NCBI GenBank assembly: GCA_900290245.1
Contig: OKRB01000086.1
Location: 142,645-206,644, forward strand
DNA: 64,000 nt
Source of the DNA: Candidatus Sulfuritelmatomonas gaucii
GTDB taxonomy: Bacteria > Acidobacteriota > Terriglobia > Terriglobales > Acidobacteriaceae
Direction: 5' to 3'
Shown: piece by piece, positions 23,664 to 41,200 of the stretch
Layout: every line of letters begins with the position of its first letter
Position numbering within the stretch: position 1 is the first letter of the stretch
Made by a program: the position numbers and the translations under genes
Notes under the pieces: generated by a model
The model's database searches: none
The model's input: only the letters and a program-made list of their open reading frames with translations
Told to the model about the DNA's origin: nothing

Positions 23664-25028
23664 TCAGTCGACCGTCAACGTGACGCTGAACGAATGCGTA
23701 ATGCCGGTGGACGTGACGTTCACAGGAATGGTGTAAGTTCCGGTCGGCGTCCCGGACCCGCCACCCTGGCCGCTGGAACCGCCTCCGCCTCCGGAACTGG
23801 CACAACTTGTGACGCCTATCGTCAGGATTGCCGCCAGCAAAACAGGCAGAAAAACTCTGCGCCGTCTACGAACCGCGAACGGCAGCAGGATCAGCCCGCA
23901 GGCCAACGGCAAGCTCCGCCAAAACAATGGCCGCTCTGCGCGGACCTGGGAACCGTTGGCCGTGGAGATTTGCACTGCAACGTTGCCCTGAACTCCGGCA
24001 CCCAGCGACTCCGTGGTTGGGTTGAAGAAACAAAGCGCATTCGAAGGTAGCGTTCCGCAGGTAAAGGTGAATGCCCCACTGGTGCCGCTTGGCGAGATGA
24101 CCATCGTGTACGTTGCCTGCTGCCCGCGAGCCACGGTCAGGCTGGAGGGGCCGGAGACGGAAACAGCGAAGTCGAAGCCGGTGCCTGAGAGGGCGACCGT
24201 TGCCGGCGCGCCAACGGAAGCTGAAGTTACGGTCAACGCGCCGGATGCCGAGCCGCCGGCACCGGGCTGAAATACCACCGAAGCTGTGCAATTTGCGCCT
24301 GCTGCCATGGCACCAGTGCACGTGTTTTGCGTGATGCTGAATGGCGCTGCGGCCGCGACCGTGACCGAGCTGATGGCATAGTTTGACGAGTTGGTGACGG
24401 TGACCGCCTGCGCGGTGCTGGATTGGCCTGCGGCCACGACAGGAAACGTCAGTTGCGAGGGATTCGTGGCCAGACCCGAAGCGAGCTGCCCGGATCCGTT
24501 CAATGGAACTGAAATCGCGGTGACACCAAATGTGGAAGAGGAGATGGCGAGCGTGGCGGCGATGGCACCCGTAGCGCCCGGCGTAAAAACGATTTGAACG
24601 GTACAACTGGTTCCGCTCGCTAAGAGCGCACCGCAGGTGGTGGCGGCGAGGGAGTAGCTGGCTGCAGCGGCGCCTGTGATCTGGAAGCCGATATTGGCCA
24701 TCGACGCGCCGCCGCTGTTGGTAATGGTAAGCGTCTGCGGCGTGCTGGGCACTCCTGGCTGCTGGTTGGTGAAGGTCAGGCTGGTTGGATTCGCAATGAA
24801 GGCGGGCGGCGCCAGTCCGGTTCCGCTCAGCGCCACGGTTTGGGTTCGAAGGGCATCCGAAATGGTCAGAGTGCCGCTGATCGCACCGACTTGCGTTGGA
24901 GCAAATTGCACGCTGATGGTACAGACCGCACCCGCTGCCAGTTGTGTGCCGCAGGTGCTCGACTCCTGAAACTGCGCGGTCGCCGAAATCGAAATCGAGG
25001 TGAGCGGCAAGCCGCCGGTATTGGTGAT
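23664..25028 (-). pseudogene. C-terminal fragment of secreted choice-of-anchor-D (ASH/HYDIN-like) repeat protein
   Basis: About 455 residues of tandem immunoglobulin-like ASH repeats of roughly 100 residues. The recurring pattern is LTITNSGGASMANIGFQITG then a Cys-containing turn (CGALLASGTSCTVQIVF) and an ATLAIS strand. The last unit is followed by a hydrophobic segment (LACGLILLPFAVRRRRRV) that resembles a sorting or membrane anchor, and a Gly-rich end. No real start codon lies here: the frame begins inside a repeat (ITNTGGLPLTSISIS) exactly where an inverted segment abuts. This is the 3' part of a larger minus-strand gene. Confidence 0.75.
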
Positions 25029-25886
25029 GTGTGGATGGCGAACAATGCTGCAGTTTCAACACCCGCGTCCATCGTCTTCACTCCGCTCACTGACAACGTG
25101 GCGGCCCTCGGCGGAGCCCCCGACGCGTCTATCAGTATCGGTGCGCTCACGGTGCAGCCCGGCGGGACAGGTGTCATCCTCGCCGGCACCGGCGACCCCA
25201 ACGACGTTCTCGATTCCTACTATGGGGCCGGCATTCTGCGCTCCGTCGACGGCGGCAACACCTGGAGTCTGATCCGGAAGACGGCGAATAAGGAAGACAG
25301 CCTGAGCGCCGAGGACTATTACTTCGCCGGCAACGGTTTTGCCGGGTTTGCATGGAGCACAGTCAATCCACAAGTCGTCGTTGCGGCGGTTTCCCAGGCC
25401 TATGAAGCCACCCAGGTCGACGCGAATCGCGCGAATGCGAGTTACGAGGGTCTCAATTGTTCCTCCGACAGCGGCGCGACGTGGCACCTGGCCACGATCA
25501 CCGATGGCGGCGGCAATGACGTGCAGGGCCCGCTCGATACCTTCCGGTCGCCAAACGGCAACGCCGCCACGGCTGTGATCTGGAACCCGGTTCGGCAGTT
25601 ATTTGTAGCAGCCGTCCGCTTTCATGGCTACTACCAATCGTCCGACGGCGTCACTTGGACGCGCATCGCGGCGCAACCCGGTTATGGCCTCACGCCGAAA
25701 ATGTGCCCTAGCAACACGGGCAGCACAGGTTCTATTGCCTGCCCCATCTACCGGGGAACTCTCGCCGTAAATCCGCAAACCGGCGACACCTTTGCCTGGA
25801 CCGTGGACCTGAACAATCAGGACCAGGGGCTATGGCAGGATCAATGCGCCATCAGCGGCGGCCCGCCGCCCGTGGTTCCAATGTAA
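25029..25886 (+). pseudogene. Inverted middle fragment of the secreted BNR-like/ASH protein
   Basis: On the plus strand, from GTG at 25029 (VWMANNAAVS) to about 25862 (DQCAISGG), this encodes about 278 residues of a beta-propeller-like domain with BNR/sialidase-type repeats (GILRSVDGGNTWSL, NCSSDSGATWHLATITDGGG, GYYQSSDGVTWTRIA). It lacks a start and signal, ends abruptly after CAISGG with a few foreign codons, and is oriented against both flanking fragments. The N-terminal fragment ends at GTTGGG, which normally continues into a VWxxNN sequence, so this segment belongs directly after it in the opposite orientation. Confidence 0.75.
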
Positions 25887-26383
25887 AGGCGATTTCCGGT
25901 CGCATCGGATGGGTCGAGCGCGAGCGCGGCGACACGGCCGGTCACGAGGCCGAAGTCAGGGCTTTCGACAGCCGTGGGTCCGAGGGGTTGCCAGGTAGCG
26001 CTTGGTACTGTCCTCAAGGCGGGTTGAGCCTGCGCTGCCGGGTCGGCTGCGATACCCGAAAACTGACTGGCCGATCTGGGAAGAGCAGTCACTCGCGGGG
26101 TTACGCGATGACCCGGAGCGAGTCCACGCTGAAGAAGAAAACGCTGCGCGTCAGTGACACGTGGAGGAATTTGGCGAAACTGAGACTCGTGCTGCGGTTG
26201 AGTTTGCGCGTCGGGCAGGAGTTGCTGCCCGATGGCCGGCGGGTTGAGCGGGAATTGCGTCAGAAGCCAAGCTGCGAGCGCCAGACCCGGGCACGCGCGG
26301 CGGTACGCTCGCCTGAGCGCAGGAAAAATGCGGCGGCCTGCGCCGGCGTTACAAAAGGGGCCCTTGTCTTTCCGATCGTGCAT
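25841..26383 (-). pseudogene. N-terminal fragment of the secreted BNR-like/ASH protein
   Basis: From an ATG at 26383 this encodes a long basic signal-like N-terminus (RRACPGLALAAWLLTQFPLN). A Gln/Ala-rich linker follows, then the start of a propeller domain: TWQPLGPTAVESPDFGLVTG, AALALDPSDATGNRLYIGTT. It ends at GTTGGG (about base 25862), after which six unrelated codons lead to a stop. The expected continuation is found inverted at 25029-25862. The start codon is uncertain because the frame is open to 26476. Confidence 0.65.
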
Positions 26384-26781
26384 TGGATTCGTGATGTGTA
26401 TCCGGAAACCGATTCCGTCCTCCCCATTCGTGAAAATCTTCCAATGGGGATGAGCGCAGAATCCACCGAATAACACTCAACGAAACACGCAACTTCCGGG
26501 AATGAGATTGTCGCCCATTATAGGACAGCGCGGAATAGGAAAAAGTGTGATGCCGGATACAAGGCGTTGACAAGAGGCAGCGGCGCACCACTGCGCGGGG
26601 TCGTCGACCAACGTGGCGCGAGCTGCAGGGAGATGCGCATGGCTTGATGGGGATCACGTAAGTGCGGCCTCCCGCTCTATTCTCAACGAGTCGGCCGCCA
26701 TTTAGGATGATTACGTTACCCTGAGGCAAGGCGCCTCTTCCCTCGATTCCATCACGTCAAACTTCGCAGCCAAGGTTTTGC
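26384..26781. other. Divergent intergenic region
   Basis: 398 bases between the BNR-like fragment (minus) and the esterase gene (plus). No coding frame, tRNA or clear hairpin terminator is seen. It should contain divergent promoters, but none is distinct enough to mark. Confidence 0.35.
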
Positions 26782-28467
26782 ATGAGACCATTTCTGCTCT
26801 CTCTTCTGCTGATCTCTGCGGCGATCGCTTTGCCCGCCCAGGAATACACGCTCGGCCCTGATTCGCAGCCGCAAGACGGCACTCCCAAGGGCACGGTAAT
26901 CAAGTTCGTGCTCCCGCCGGGAAAGTACTATCCGGGAACACCGCACAACTGCGCCGTGTATGTGCCCGCGCAGTTCGACCCGAGCAAGCCCACGCCATTC
27001 ATGATTTTCCTGGACGGAGGCCAGGCGCTGGGAAGCTCGATGCGGGTGCCGGTGGTCTTCGACAACCTGATCGCCAGGCACGAAATCCCCGCAATGATCG
27101 GCATCTTCGTCGATCCCGGTATTCTGCCTGTTGTTTCCGATACGGACCAGAACCGCTACAACCGCATCTACGAATACGACTCGATGACGCCGCGGTTTGC
27201 CGACTTTCTTCTTAATGAACTCATTCCCGCGGTGGCGAAGAGCTATAACCTCTCTAAGAGCCCTGACGACCGCGGTCTGAGCGGCGTCAGCACCGGCGCG
27301 GTAGGCGCGTTCATGGCGGCGTGGAACCGGCCTGACCAGTTTCATCGCGTGCTGAGCTTCATCGGCACGTATGTTGCGATGAAAGGCGCGGATCGATTGC
27401 CGGCACTGGTGCGCAGGACAGAACCGAAGCCGATCCGCATTTTCATGCAGGACGGAACCAACGATCACATTGTGCCCACCCAGACTTATGGGACATCGTT
27501 TGCCGGAAGCTGGCCGATCAACAACCAGGTCATGTACGAGGCGCTCGAGTTCGAGGGCTACGACGTGAAGCTGGTGATGGGCACGGAGGGCCATAACCTG
27601 AAGCAGGGCGGCGCGATTTTGCCCGATGCGCTGCGCTGGCTGTGGCGCGACTATCCGCAGCCGGTCGTGGTGCATGAGCCCGCCGCGGTGCACGAGCCAG
27701 ACTGGGATCCGGTCGCAAAGGTCTTTTCGACAATCTATGTGGACAAGCCATGGCAGCAAATCGGCGGCGAGTTTCATTCGATCTACAGCCTGACCGCCGA
27801 TCGCAATGGGAATGTCTATTTCCCGGATCCGGTAGCGGGATGCGTTGATCGTGTGGACGCGACGGGCAAGGTGACACACTTTACCGAGCCGCCAGACTAC
27901 GCGTCGATCGTGCGCATGGGCGTCGGTGATCAGCTTTACACTTACGAACCATCGACCGCCGACATTGTTGCTTCGAGCACGCTGACCGCCGTGGCGAGCG
28001 GCGAACGGACGATCATCAGGAACCTCGCCGGTGTGAAGGATTTTGCCGTTACGCAGAAAGGAGCGATCTACTTCATTGATGGTTCGTCGGCGACGATCGG
28101 GTTCATCGATTCTGCCGGTGAGGCGAAGACCGCGTTACGCTGGGCCGATCTGGACGGGGAGATGACCTTACCGCATGGGCTGACTCTCTCGCCCGACCAA
28201 TCGATGCTGGTGGTGAGCGATGGGGTTTCTCGCTATAGCTGGTCGTTCCAGATTGCACCCGATGGCTCACTCGAAAACGGCGAGCCGTTTTACAGGATGG
28301 AATTGCCCGAGACGACCATGCTGCCATGGCAGAGCGGAACTCGAGGCGCGATGGAGGACACAGCCGGCATGGTGTATTTCGCCACGCCCCTCGGCATTCA
28401 AATCTGCATGGAAAACGGACGAGTCGCCGAGATTTTGAATTGCCGGCGCCGGGCGCCGAGCCGCTGA
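26782..28467 (+). CDS. Secreted esterase / SMP-30-like (gluconolactonase-type) fusion, frameshifted near the 3' end
   Basis: A signal peptide (FLLSLLLISAAIALPAQ) precedes an alpha/beta-hydrolase of the enterochelin-esterase/putative-esterase type at about residues 40-290. PFMIFLDGGQALG is there, and a nucleophile Ser lies in GLSGVSTGAVGAFM. TEGHNLKQGG may supply the His. Residues 310-560 form a six-bladed propeller of the SMP-30/gluconolactonase type (SIYSLTADRNGNVYFPDP, LPHGLTLSPDQSMLVVSDG). The frame ends in CRRRAPSR instead of the usual last blade; that blade is found in another frame (28440-28604). The substrate is unknown. Confidence 0.8.
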   Translation: MRPFLLSLLLISAAIALPAQEYTLGPDSQPQDGTPKGTVIKFVLPPGKYYPGTPHNCAVYVPAQFDPSKPTPFMIFLDGGQALGSSMRVPVVFDNLIARHEIPAMIGIFVDPGILPVVSDTDQNRYNRIYEYDSMTPRFADFLLNELIPAVAKSYNLSKSPDDRGLSGVSTGAVGAFMAAWNRPDQFHRVLSFIGTYVAMKGADRLPALVRRTEPKPIRIFMQDGTNDHIVPTQTYGTSFAGSWPINNQVMYEALEFEGYDVKLVMGTEGHNLKQGGAILPDALRWLWRDYPQPVVVHEPAAVHEPDWDPVAKVFSTIYVDKPWQQIGGEFHSIYSLTADRNGNVYFPDPVAGCVDRVDATGKVTHFTEPPDYASIVRMGVGDQLYTYEPSTADIVASSTLTAVASGERTIIRNLAGVKDFAVTQKGAIYFIDGSSATIGFIDSAGEAKTALRWADLDGEMTLPHGLTLSPDQSMLVVSDGVSRYSWSFQIAPDGSLENGEPFYRMELPETTMLPWQSGTRGAMEDTAGMVYFATPLGIQICMENGRVAEILNCRRRAPSR

Positions 28468-28604
28468 GCGCGATCACCTTTTCCGGCGCAGGCGATGCAG
28501 ACTGGATCTACGCCGCGCAGGGCGGCAAGCTGTACCGGCGGCCGGTGAAGGTGACCGGAGCGAATGCATGGACGGTGATGAAGCCGCCAAAGCCGACGCT
28601 TTAA
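28440..28604 (+). pseudogene. Frameshifted C-terminal blade of the esterase/SMP-30 fusion
   Basis: Read one frame back from 28440, the sequence gives LPAPGAEPLSAITFSGAGDA, then DWIYAAQGGKLYRRPVK and a TAA stop at 28602-28604. This is the expected last propeller blade of an SMP-30-like domain. One missing base near 28440 (AAT-[N]TG-CCG) would restore a 607-residue protein. Confidence 0.7.
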
Positions 28605-36933: not shown

Positions 36934-37273
36934 TCAGTCTCCAGCCTCCACTGCAGCCTTGGGCTTGATCTTGGCTCCCGGTAACAACATGCGGATTTCG
37001 TTCATGGGGATCATAGGCAGGAAGCGAACGAACAACAGGAACATGAACACGAAGAACGCTACCGTGCCAAAGAAGGTCATGTAGTCCCACTTGGTCGCGC
37101 GATATGTGCCCCAGGCCGACGGCAGAAAGTCGCGAGTGAGACTGGTAACGATAATGACGAAGCGCTCAAACCACATGCCCGTGTTCACCACTATAGAGAG
37201 GATGAACATGTAGGTGATGTTGGTTCGCAGCTTGCGCGACCAAAGCGTAGTGAGCGGAATGACCAGATTGAGC
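36934..37273 (-). pseudogene. actC: Frameshifted C-terminal part of ActC
   Basis: In a frame one base off from the upstream actC reading, the codons give [20 protein letters not shown], a membrane helix with [20 protein letters not shown], a last helix (FFGTVAFFVFMFLLFVRFLP) and a charged tail, ending one base before the actD ATG. This is the expected C-terminus of ActC. The spacing to actD shows it is the original stop of the gene. Confidence 0.8.
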
Positions 37274-38275
37274 GGAGTACCAGGCCATGAAGGCTTCCAT
37301 GCCGTAGCCGTAGGCGACGATGAAGCCGGTGACCAGCATGATCTTGCCCATGTTGTCGATGTGGCGCTCGGTAACGAGCTGTTCAAGGTGATAAAACTTG
37401 CGCAGCGGAATGGCCAGCGAAAGCACCATGGCGAAGCCCGAGTAAATGGCGCCGGCAACGAAGTATGGCGGGAAGATGGTGGTATGCCAGCCGGGGAGAA
37501 CGGCGACAGCAAAATCGAAACTAATGACCGTGTGTACTGAGAGCACCAGCGGCGTGGCCAGGCCGGCCAGCAGCAACGACGCGGTTTCGTAGCGCATCCA
37601 GTGGCGCGCCGAGCCGCGCCAGCCAACGCTCATGATGCCGTAGAAGTATTGCGCAATCTTTGATTGCGAGCGGTCACGCAGGGTGCCGAGGTCGGGCACC
37701 ATTCCGATGTACCAGAAGACCACTGAGATGGTGGCGTAGGTTGAGACCGCGAAGACGTCCCACATGAGCGGGGAGCGGAACTGCGGCCACACCGTCATGG
37801 TGAAGGGCAGCGGCAGCATCCAGTAACCCAGCCAGGGACGGCCGACGTGAATGAGCGGGAACATCGCCGCGCACATGACAGCGAAGATGGTCATGGCCTC
37901 GGCGAAGCGGCTGATGGCGTTGCGCCAGCCCTGCTTGAAAAGCAAAAGAATTGCCGAGATGAGCGTGCCGGCGTGGCCGATGCCGATCCACCAGACGAAG
38001 TTGATGATGGCAAAGCCCCAGGCCACCGGCTGCGTGATACCCCAAATACCGACGCCCTTCAGAAAGAGCCACGTCAGTGCCACCATCAACATCACGCTGC
38101 CGCCGCCGGCGATGGCGAAGATGCCGAACCACCCCAGTGGCGTGTGCGGCGTAAGCACGATGTGTGCAATCTTCTCGGTGATCGACCGGAAGGTCTGTCC
38201 CGGGCCTATGACCCGGAATTCTCCGGTTGCGGGATCGATCCCGGGATCGTTGGGTTTTACTTCCCTGGTTGCCAT
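37166..38275 (-). CDS. actC: Alternative Complex III membrane subunit ActC (NrfD/PsrC-like), truncated by frameshift
   Basis: ActC is the quinol-binding, NrfD-like core of ACIII. Intact helices run from [20 protein letters not shown] to [20 protein letters not shown]. At about 37273 (AWYS) the frame changes. The remaining 36 codons ([20 protein letters not shown] and on) are foreign, while the true C-terminus continues in another frame to 36934. ActC homologues usually have about 25-30 more residues between the AWYS and RKLRTN motifs, so a deletion of that size, not a multiple of three, is inferred. As written, ActC lacks its last two helices. Confidence 0.88.
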
Positions 38276-38282
38276 CGTGAAT

Positions 38283-41200
38283 TCAACCCTTTGCCGGTTC
38301 GTGCGTCACCGGCGTCTCTTCAAGTTCCTGGTTCGGATTCAAAACCTCTGCCACATAAGTGGTTCGCGGACGCGTGTTGATGTCTGCGATCACCTGGTAA
38401 GCGCGCTGTTGAGCGCGCAGCTTCGAAACCCTGCTGTTCGGATCGTTCTTGTTGCCGAAGACGATCGCCTGTGCCGGGCACGCCTGCTGGCACGCTGTCA
38501 CAATCTCGCCGTCGCGGACGTTGCGGTTTTCTTTGTCGGCTTCGATCTTCGCGGCCTGAATGCGTTGCACACAGTAATTGCATTTCTCCATTACGCCGCG
38601 CGAGCGCACCGTCACATCGGGGTTGCGCATCAGCTTCAGGCTCTCGGTCTCGTAATCGGAGAAGAGCAGGAAGTTGAAGCGGCGCACCTTGTAAGGGCAG
38701 TTATTGGAGCAGTAGCGCGTACCCACGCAGCGGTTGTAGACCATCATGTTCAGGCCTTCCGGCGTGTGCACAGTGGCGCCTACCGGGCAAACCTGTTCGC
38801 AGGGAGCGTTCTCGCACTGCTGGCAATTCATCGGCTGGAAGTGCGCGCGTGGCGAGGCCAGATCGCCTTCGAAGTAGGTATCGATCCGGAGCCACTGCAT
38901 GTTGCGGCCGATCCGTACTTCCTGCTTTCCGACCACGGGGATGTTGTTCTCGGCGTAGCAGCTCACAATGCATGCATTGCAGGCCGTACAGCTGTTCATG
39001 TCGATCGACAGGGCCCATGCATAGGCTTCGTTGTACGGCCAGTTGGGGAAGAGTGATGTGTCGAGGCTCGGCGTCTCGTGCGTGTCGCCCTCGTGTGCAA
39101 AATTCGGATTCGCCTTGAATTCGTCGAGCGTGGCATAGCGGATGATTCCGCGCGGTCCAAGCGCCTCGTCAGCTTCGAGCGAATTGTCGCCGCTTCCCTG
39201 CCCCAGCAGGGATTTCGCGCGGTGGTCCTGGTAGTGGCTCTTGGTGATGGCGATGCCCCACTTGCCTTCCAACTTGCGCAACGATCCGGTTGCGTAGAAC
39301 GGCGCCCAAGCGTTGCGAATGACGTATGCGCTGAAGCCCTGGCCCGAACCAACGCGCCCGGCAAACTCGCGACCATAACCGAGATACACCGTGATCGACT
39401 CGTCAGGATGACCCGGCGCCACCATCACGGGCGCCTTCACCCTGCCTTTGCCGACACATAGTTCAACGATGTCGTCTTCTTCGAGGTTGTATTTGACCAG
39501 TGTTGCGCCGCTCATGATGGCCGCGTTGTCCCAGCTCAGGCTGGTGACGGGCTTGGGCAGCTCCTGCAGCCAGCCCACGTTATTCCAGCGGCCGTCGTAG
39601 ATATTCGGATCAGGCCGGAAGATGATTTCGAGCGAGTCTTTCGGTGTCGGCGTGGGAACCTTCGGAATCGACGGTCCGCCAGGCCGGGCTTTGTCTTGCC
39701 GCGCGTACGCCGTGTCCGCGATCCAGCCGTCGTGCAGTGCCTTGCGCCAGCCCTCTTCGAAATCGCCCTTGATATTGGCCTTCTGCGTCTCACGCACCGC
39801 CGCATAGGCGCTCAGCATCGGCTCATTCAGCAGCGCCTGGAATACATCGTGCGCGGTGTGGCCGCCATAAAGCGGATCGATCATCGGCTGGACGATCGAA
39901 ACGGTGCCGTCGTAGGCGCGCGCATCCGACCACGACTCAAGATAGTGCGCCGCGGGAATGTGCCAGTGGGCCTGGTGGCCGGTCTCGTCGTAATGCGAGC
40001 CGAGATGCGCCACGATTTTGGCCTGGTTGAACGCGTCCGCGAAATCAAGGTCGGCGGGAGCGTCGTAGATGGGATTGGCGTTGAGAATGATGAGCCAATC
40101 CACTTTGCCCGCATTGAGATCGGCAACGAGCGCTTTGAAATCGCCAAACTGATCGCTGGGCAGCGGGATTACGGAATCAGACGAGACGAAGACCGTTTTG
40201 CCGACGTTCGCCAGAAGATTGTTGATAGCCAGCGTAAGCGCAGCCAGTGCCGGATCGTGATAAACGCCCGGAAGCACGGCGCTCTTGCCCGCATTCGCTT
40301 TCAGATCCTTGGCCAGAGCGGCCAGGAACTTCTGCTGCTCGTCGGTCCATGAATAGGATGGCGGGTTAACTCCGGCAACGCCCACAGCCTGCGCCAGTGC
40401 GGCGGTGAATGCAGGAATCTCGCTGGCGCGAAGACCGAGGCGGTGCTCTGCCTTCATGCCGGTCGTGGTCGGCGTGCTTTCGACCACGTAAAGCCGATTC
40501 ATGCCGTTCTCTGGCTGCCGCCGCCGGTCTGCATAGTCGCGCACAAGCCGGTGGAAGCCGGGATACGAAGCGCCGGAAAGAAAATCGGCATCGAGCGAAA
40601 CGATGACATCGGCGCCGGTCAGGTCGTAGCGGACGTTCATTCCGCTCGCGAGCACCGTTCCAGCCAGCGCCGGGTCGTACTGTACGAGCTTCGCCTTCGG
40701 ATAAGCCTTCTGCACTTCCTGCCATTGCCTCGCAAGGGTCGGCGAAGTGAAGGTCGCGCTCAGAAAGTAGATGCCCGAGCCATCCTTCGTCGAGGCCACT
40801 TTCCCGCGAAATGCTTCGGCAAACTCCGCCCACTCCCGCCCATCGCCTTCGAACGTCACATGCTGCGAACGGTCGGGATCGTAGAGATCGAGCAGAGTGC
40901 CCTGCGAATACGGATCAGAACCGCCCTGGTTATACGAGTGTTCAGGGTTGCCGTCGATCTTGATGGGACGAAATTCGTCGCTCTTCACCAGCACCGGCAC
41001 GCCGCCCGTCGAGAACGGGTGCATGGTGGCAAAGTACATCGGCTTGCCGAGAATCAGATCTTCCGGCGACTTGATGTAGGGATAAATGATCTCGTCGGGC
41101 TGCTTGGTGCAACCGGCCATTCCGGCCAGCGCCAGCGAAGCTCCCATCAATTTCAAGAATCCACGGCGCGAAACCGGATCCACCCACTCCTGGGCCATCG

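What the first reader, a model, noticed from the sequence alone, without database searches (positions are those of the whole stretch)
25029..25862. A central segment of a secreted repeat protein is inverted inside its own gene
Seen: the minus-strand N-terminal fragment stops making sense at GTTGGG (base 25862). The minus-strand C-terminal fragment begins inside an ASH repeat at base 25028. The sequence expected to follow the N-terminal part (VWMANNAAVS onward) reads on the plus strand from 25029 to 25862. Short inverted identities lie at the ends (GATGGCG 25034-25040 with CGCCATC 25847-25853), and the right junction is a GGCGG-C-CCGCC foldback. Even after re-inversion the propeller ends at CAISGG, where relatives as I know them continue for several hundred residues, so material is also missing. 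This is a real rearrangement, a phase-variable switch, or a foldback chimera from assembly or amplification.
Basis: partly seen in the sequence, partly recalled or inferred. Interest (0 to 1): 0.72.

Follow-up and report, generated by a model that had tools for sequence, protein, structure and literature searches.

The report
Gene broken by inversion and deletion
In this assembled soil-bacterium genome one large gene for a predicted secreted protein has an 834-base piece lying backwards inside it and about 2,200 bases missing beside it; this is likely a one-off DNA break or copying accident, possibly an assembly error, and it is unlikely to be a genetic switch.

Summary
Window 25029-25862 (+) encodes 278 residues that sit inside one long frame in relatives, mostly about 1,600-1,900 codons; here its start and end fragments lie on the minus strand. 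In 21 of 22 related ORFs the start fragment runs straight into the flipped piece (the 22nd is cut by its contig), so that breakpoint is balanced to about one base. About 740 codons (2.2 kb) that should follow the flipped piece are absent, also from the readable genome. None of 68 homologous loci (56 distinct) shows such a flip. It does not look like an invertible switch: no inverted repeat at the breakpoints, neither of two recombinase families within about 95 kb, and DNA is lost. Junction overlaps are at most about 1 nt, but the right junction is a palindrome with 7-nt arms (p about 0.004), because GCGGCGG lies at two breakpoints. The genome has Ku and LigD. Best explanation: a single repeat-poor inversion-deletion in this lineage (0.52). 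A local assembly error is close behind (0.40): the assembly has other out-of-frame lesions, one in the only close copy of an NrfD-type gene, and N gaps with unmerged overlaps. Reads would decide. Low interest.

The parts
23664..25028 (-). C-terminal fragment (454 aa + stop): ASH/choice-of-anchor-D repeats and, by homology to the G013 protein, a C-terminal anchoring tail; begins mid-repeat at ITNTGG
   Evidence: Pfam ASH/Cep192_D4 hits; aligns to residues 1197-1657 of the G013 protein at 71%; followed by gatC and gatA as in many relatives
25029..25862 (+). Inverted central segment S, 278 codons of the first propeller
   Evidence: aligns to S in relatives at 64-78%; 262/276 identical to P0168
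25862..26476 (-). N-terminal fragment N (205 codons), ends at TGGG; base 25862 could belong to N or S
   Evidence: aligns contiguously before S in 21 of 22 related ORFs
25028..25029 (.). Left junction J2 (C fragment to start of S); about 2.2 kb (about 740 codons, M) is missing in gene order between the end of S and C
   Evidence: no close match to M elsewhere in the readable own genome
25855..25869 (.). Right junction J1: 15-nt palindrome GCGGCGG-C-CCGCCGC across 25862/25863
   Evidence: P = 0.0038 for arms of 7 nt or more at random inversion junctions in a composite of this gene
25034..25040 (+). GATGGCG, short inverted identity with 25847-25853, inside the segment and not at the breakpoints
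25847..25853 (+). CGCCATC, partner of 25034-25040
24840..25886 (+). Hybrid ORF: antisense of the ASH repeats, then S, then antisense of N; made by the rearrangement, unlikely to be a gene
   Evidence: the only one of 353 queries with an antisense match inside the gene at E 1e-6
25841..26476 (-). Truncated N ORF (211 aa) that ends in six antisense codons PPLMAH
   Evidence: in the listed 120 of 128 hits only the window's own copy (P0240) is close, the next is 47%

Best explanation
In this assembly an 834-base piece of the gene for a large predicted secreted propeller protein lies backwards within its own gene and about 2.2 kilobases that relatives carry next to it are missing, likely because a one-off DNA break or copying error, not a switch, hit this bacterium's lineage. 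Shown: the order N-S-M-C in relatives, the window's order N-inverted S-C, balance to about one base at N|S, loss of M, three otherwise open fragments. Inferred: the DNA was probably cut at N|S and at S|M, next to GCGGCGG repeats; the freed 834-bp piece was rejoined backwards; 2.2 kb of the right-hand end was lost before joining. Ku/LigD end joining would do this without homology; replication template switching between the GC-rich repeats is an equal alternative. The result would be a dead gene. That it happened in the cell and not in the assembly is the weakest step.
For: No strand flip in 68 of 68 homologous loci; they hold 56 distinct sequences, 65 span N|S, 68 span S|M and 59 run from N to the start of C in one alignment. 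N|S contiguous in 21 of 22 ORFs. The N|S breakpoint is balanced to about 1 nt, which a physically flipped fragment gives and two independent false joins would give only by chance. Flanks are syntenic on both sides: an esterase-like gene upstream as in five of the relatives, gatC and gatA downstream as in many. Both junctions are gapless, while the scaffold joins that can be recognised (13 in 778 kb) carry 10 Ns. One copy only, so no foldback duplication. Ku and LigD genes side by side on C13. The gene is sometimes lost in relatives: in-frame stops in G014 (L038/L075) and L077 and a frame change in G017 (L051). P0168, about 95% identical, keeps S-M-C in normal order but is itself truncated at both ends, which fits a dispensable gene. 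Changes at conserved columns between window and P0168 are somewhat in excess (4 of 20 against 86 of 1323 in control pairs, p = 0.04), though 3 of the 4 lie on the P0168 side.
Against: No read evidence. The window's fragments are otherwise ordinary: 1 of 56 invariant S columns and 1 of 30 in C violated, within the range of relatives; S hits 1 of 101 conserved columns, rank 21 of 56, while the window's gatA hits 9 of 303, rank 2 of 27. So a real event must be very recent. The same assembly has other single lesions in conserved frames: 5 in 160 kb tested, this inversion included, against 1 (strict) to 3 (lenient) in 312 kb of four control genomes; p = 0.02 to 0.09, or 0.05 to 0.18 if the doubtful C66 site is dropped. 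One is an out-of-frame deletion of about 76 nt in the only close copy of an NrfD-type gene. Three of the 13 N gaps sit between exact unmerged overlaps of 29-49 nt and a fourth shares 43 nt two bases off, the mark of assemblers suspected of local errors (PMC7111523). P0168's truncations may themselves be sequencing errors. Inversions without inverted repeats are rare in bacteria (recalled).
Confidence: 0.52

Rival explanations
1. Local assembly error: the assembler placed an 834-bp piece backwards between two neighbouring contigs and dropped the 2.2-kb stretch between; the bacterium's gene would be intact.
For: Other out-of-frame lesions in conserved genes of this assembly, including the only close copy of an NrfD-type gene. 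Scaffold gaps with unmerged overlaps, described for IDBA-UD and CLC assemblies together with local errors that lack read support (PMC7111523, section 9 read). The window fragments show no decay. No other locus examined has the flip. The 2.2-kb M could lie in an unbinned or masked contig: three of the small contigs sampled read entirely as N.
Against: No N run at either junction although recognisable joins in the assembly carry 10 Ns. Overlap at the junctions is at most about 1 nt, too little for a k-mer overlap join. Flush balance at N|S. The base-level consensus of neighbouring housekeeping genes looks sound: mostly conservative, scattered differences.
Confidence: 0.4
2. Amplification or library chimera: strand switching in vitro (for example MDA) made an inverted molecule that entered the assembly.
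For: 406 of 475 MDA chimeras (85%) in one study were inversions, and these tended to join segments under 10 kb apart (PMC1855051, abstract and Results read). J1 is a foldback-like palindrome.
Against: In that study complementary bases at the priming site were found in 93.5% of inverted chimeras under 10 kb; here overlap is at most about 1 nt. Two switches with a balanced N|S would be needed, and the chimera would have to outnumber normal molecules in a 93.8%-complete, 0.38%-contaminated genome.
Confidence: 0.06
3. Phase-variable intragenic inversion: a recombinase flips S to switch the surface protein on and off.
For: The gene encodes a large predicted surface or secreted repeat protein, a usual kind of cargo (recalled); a 7-nt inverted identity and a 21-nt, 76% complementary pair (25004-25024 / 25849-25869) lie near the ends.
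Against: Breakpoints are not inside either repeat in mirror positions: the mirror of 25028/25029 under the 21-nt pair falls 18 nt from 25862/25863. M is lost, so flipping back cannot restore the gene. Of the two recombinase families searched, PF00239 has no member on C158 and the only PF00589 member on this scaffold is about 95 kb from the segment; other recombinase or transposase families were not searched. Relatives show only the native order.
Confidence: 0.02

Closest known systems
Collinear Terracidiphilus/Acidobacteriaceae BNR-propeller plus choice-of-anchor-D protein (e.g. the 1,657-codon ORF in G013/palsa_249; P0121, P0128)
   Same: All three fragments are orthologous to it (N 47%, S 78%, C 71% to G013); P0168 is 95% identical over S, the next listed database proteins 82-87%
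   Different: Relatives have one frame, mostly about 1,600-1,900 codons; the window has S inverted and about 740 codons missing
GH74 xyloglucanases (e.g. PDB 7kn8, 5fkq)
   Same: The AlphaFold model of the propeller region of G013 (821 aa, pLDDT 72) has these as its top PDB matches
   Different: 12-15% identity, TM about 0.24-0.43 in the top 18, catalytic residues not tested; a fold likeness only, and the window copy is broken
Invertons / phase-variable invertible segments
   Same: An internal segment of a predicted surface-protein gene lies in reverse orientation
   Different: No inverted repeats at the breakpoints, no member of two recombinase families near, adjacent DNA lost, single state seen
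MDA inversion chimeras (Lasken and Stockwell 2007, PMC1855051)
   Same: Local inversion with neighbouring deletion
   Different: Two junctions, balanced breakpoint, at most about 1 nt overlap, sole version in the assembly
Local assembly errors in metagenome-assembled genomes (Chen et al. 2020, PMC7111523)
   Same: Same assembly shows unmerged overlaps at N gaps and several out-of-frame lesions
   Different: Both junctions here are gapless and the segment is inverted with a balanced edge

Membership tests
Pseudogene by inversion-deletion of the BNR/choice-of-anchor-D gene | Fragments orthologous to one collinear gene in relatives | tested here: met
Pseudogene by inversion-deletion of the BNR/choice-of-anchor-D gene | Rearranged order present in the living genome | not testable with these tools
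   no reads; no conspecific DNA found in the collections searched
Pseudogene by inversion-deletion of the BNR/choice-of-anchor-D gene | Relaxed selection after inactivation | tested here: inconclusive
   1/56 and 1/30 invariant columns hit, ordinary; S rank 21 of 56; 4/20 against 86/1323 changes at conserved columns, p = 0.04, but only 1 of the 4 on the window side
Inverton / phase-variable segment | Inverted repeats at both breakpoints | tested here: not met
Inverton / phase-variable segment | Conserved content in both orientations, no loss | tested here: not met
   about 740 codons missing
Inverton / phase-variable segment | Both orientations in a population | not testable with these tools
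   no reads
MDA chimera | Complementary priming bases at the junction (2-21 nt in over 70% of cases) | tested here: not met
   at most about 1 nt overlap, judged from relatives' N|S, S|M and M|C sequences since the window's own M is gone; definition from PMC1855051
Choice-of-anchor D / ASH repeat protein | Hits to NF012200 or PF15780 above cut-off | tested here: met
   window C fragment PF15780 61 bits against cut-off 27; G013 protein NF012200 217.9 against 45
GH74-like double propeller | Fold match | tested here: inconclusive
   top Foldseek PDB hits but low TM and mid-confidence model; single weak sequence hit to a BNR hydrolase, E 0.0017

The most novel reading that the evidence does not exclude
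Gly-Gly codon runs (GGCGGC) in these giant propeller genes act as template-switch hotspots in living cells: strand switching between the repeats at N|S, S|M and just inside C would flip and delete whole propeller sections in one step, a repeat-poor route to local inversion in bacteria.
Probability: 0.07. Interest if true: 0.45.

Novelty: new member of a known kind. Interest (0 to 1): 0.18.

Why it matters
If real, it is a clean example of a local, nearly homology-free inversion-deletion in a bacterium with Ku/LigD, a class seldom caught because most bacterial inversions use repeats (recalled). If an artefact, it warns that this public assembly contains locally scrambled genes, and that an apparent inverted gene segment should not be read as a phase switch without reads.

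Tried and rejected
Phase-variable switch: rejected (no repeats at the breakpoints, loss of M, no member of PF00239 on the scaffold and the only PF00589 member about 95 kb away). Inter-genome chimera: disfavoured, since both flanks are syntenic with relatives and all three fragments are orthologous to one gene. S as an independent gene: rejected; its ORF starts in antisense of the ASH repeats, and of the 352 database proteins held (the listed best of three capped searches, one of them the window's own truncated N ORF) none has an antisense match inside the gene at E 1e-6, a test that would miss short tails. Similar flips elsewhere in the family: none in 68 loci. Viral collection: no relative. 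Shared breakpoint with P0168: it starts at the third codon of S, but the last start-like codon of N is 27 codons before S, and 5 of 305 S-containing proteins start within 6 residues of S, so this start says only that N is broken somewhere upstream; no close N fragment of 116-369 aa was among the listed 120 of 128 hits besides the window's own. The end of P0168 reads like a frameshift, by comparison with the window DNA. Relaxed-selection tests were weak or negative for the window. One search stopped with an error at the tenth gene; nine had printed. In one search one NrfD piece was read in the wrong frame and gave nothing. Not counted as lesions: three 10-N gaps (C158, C118, L196), a gene fused only in G002 (also flagged in three controls), and one site supported by a single 56-61% reference. 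Literature: searches found no paper holding all their terms; some searches gave listings; of the papers listed I read the abstract and Results of PMC1855051, passages and section 9 of PMC7111523 and passages of PMC11892184.

Full report
What is there. The window lies in contig C158 (269,762 bp) of a genome of 5.29 Mb in 162 contigs, 93.8% complete and 0.38% contaminated. Named relatives that carry the gene are Acidobacteriaceae, including Terracidiphilus. Around 25 kb, three open frames belong to one protein: a minus-strand N fragment ending at codon 25862-25864, a plus-strand segment S at 25029-25862 (278 codons), and a minus-strand C fragment from 25028 to 23664.

Homology. In same-genus relatives the three are parts of one frame, mostly about 1,600-1,900 codons. 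N ends and S begins on adjacent residues in 21 of 22 ORFs (the 22nd is cut by its contig). S is 64-78% identical over at least its residues 1-274 to 21 of the 22; the other aligned over 93 residues at 83%. Between S and C relatives have about 740 residues (736-755 in 13 of 20 ORFs). The window lacks them, and a search of the readable own genome with the G013 protein found no other close match. A DNA search found only one copy of the region. In tblastn with the G013 protein none of 68 other loci had matches on both strands; only the window was mixed. The 68 hold 56 distinct sequences; 65 span N|S, 68 span S|M and 59 run from N to the start of C in one alignment. Not every relative is whole: G014 (L038/L075) and L077 have in-frame stops inside the alignment, L043/L083 has one too, near or outside its ORF start as far as I can tell, and L051 (G017) changes frame. 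A search of 80 same-genus genomes found S in 74, the best outside the own genome at 76% DNA identity; that search does not test orientation.

A close allele. Database protein P0168 (1,313 aa) is 95% identical to S (262/276) and to the first 294 residues of C (279/294) and has M between them. So the native order exists in near kin. P0168 lacks N and the last 160 residues of C. Its start at the third codon of S and its end, which reads like a frameshift when set beside the window DNA, suggest it is broken too, by sequencing error or by decay.

Junctions. The window joins N to the reverse complement of S with at most one shared base (25862), and the reverse complement of S to C with none or one, judged against the relatives' N|S, S|M and M|C sequences. 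The N|S edge is balanced: no base lost or doubled as far as the alignment can tell. The right junction forms GCGGCGG-C-CCGCCGC (25855-25869) because GCGGCGG ends both N and S. Arms of 7 nt or more occurred in 0.38% of 20,000 random inversions in a composite of this gene. A 21-nt, 76% complementary pair (25004-25024 / 25849-25869) also exists, but the two breakpoints are not mirror images under it (18 nt off), so it is unlikely to be the recombination site. Its chance expectation was not tested.

Switch or not. A switch needs repeats at the breakpoints, an enzyme and both states. Resolvase-family recombinases (PF00239) are on C91 and C66 only, and the one PF00589 integrase on C158 is about 95 kb away; other enzyme families were not searched. 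With M gone, flipping S back would not restore the gene.

Real or artefact. For a real event: gapless junctions in an assembly whose recognisable joins carry 10 Ns (13 gaps in 778 kb), the balanced edge, no duplication, Ku and LigD side by side on C13, stops or frame changes in a few relatives, a truncated close allele, and a weak excess of changes at conserved columns (4/20 against 86/1323, p = 0.04), of which only 1 of 10 window-side changes and 3 of 10 P0168-side changes count. For an artefact: the window's own fragments look normal, and there are out-of-frame lesions elsewhere in the same assembly. These are an esterase-like gene frameshift near 28440, an out-of-frame deletion of about 76 nt at 37268/37269 in the only close copy of an NrfD-type gene, a 14-nt tandem duplication near C158:72.6 kb, and a possible frameshift at C66:19.3 kb. 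With the inversion that makes 5 in 160 kb of tested coding sequence against 1 to 3 in 312 kb from four control genomes (p = 0.019 to 0.094; 0.048 to 0.18 without the C66 site). Three of the 13 N gaps sit between exact unmerged overlaps (29, 33 and 49 nt) and a fourth shares 43 nt two bases off, a fault described for IDBA-UD and CLC assemblies together with unsupported local errors (PMC7111523, section 9). The NrfD lesion is not decisive, since the genome also has cytochrome b genes. Neighbouring housekeeping genes show mostly conservative differences, so base-level accuracy looks good, although gatA has more changes at conserved columns than most relatives (9 of 303, rank 2 of 27). I put the real event at 0.52 and the assembly error at 0.40.

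Mechanism. Two breaks, at N|S and S|M, would free the 834-bp piece; backward rejoining after loss of 2.2 kb of the right-hand end gives exactly this map. End joining by Ku/LigD needs no homology (recalled). Template switching between the GGCGGC runs would also fit the palindrome. Both are inferred.

What the gene would make. The G013 protein has a predicted propeller region whose best PDB fold matches are GH74 xyloglucanases (low TM, model pLDDT 72), then ASH/choice-of-anchor-D repeats and a lipo-invert C-terminal tail. The divergent neighbour is a putative esterase, found beside the gene in five relatives; gatC and gatA follow it in many. A role outside the cell on polysaccharides is a guess. 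In the window, most of the first propeller would be inverted and the second, with the first ASH repeats, is gone.

Comparison with known things. It works like an ordinary rearranged pseudogene. It fails the inverton tests that could be run, and it lacks the priming overlaps typical of MDA inversions (PMC1855051).

Noticed in passing
window 26782-28604: Esterase-like gene (PF00756) next to the broken gene has a frameshift near 28440; relatives run through, e.g. a 618-codon ORF in G013.
   Followed up: partly
window 36937-38287: NrfD-type gene, 88-90% identical to G013 over its first part, has an out-of-frame deletion of about 76 nt at 37268/37269; no other close copy in the genome.
   Followed up: partly
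window end 64000; G000:C158:206645-206654: The window ends exactly at a 10-N scaffold gap whose flanks share 33 identical bases.
   Followed up: yes
G000:C158 about 72.57-72.60 kb: A 14-nt tandem duplication shifts the frame of a gene that is one frame in G002.
   Followed up: partly
window 25455-25460: S residues 143-144 read NC where nearly all relatives have YY (95 and 115 of 118), a clustered multi-base change.
   Followed up: no
G000:C13:1252-2957: Ku and LigD genes lie side by side.
   Followed up: no
G000 contigs C2, C8, C15: These small contigs read entirely as N, so absence of M from the genome holds only for the readable part.
   Followed up: no
L077; L038/L075 (G014); L051 (G017): The same propeller gene carries in-frame stops or a frame change in these relatives, so it may be dispensable.
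   Followed up: no
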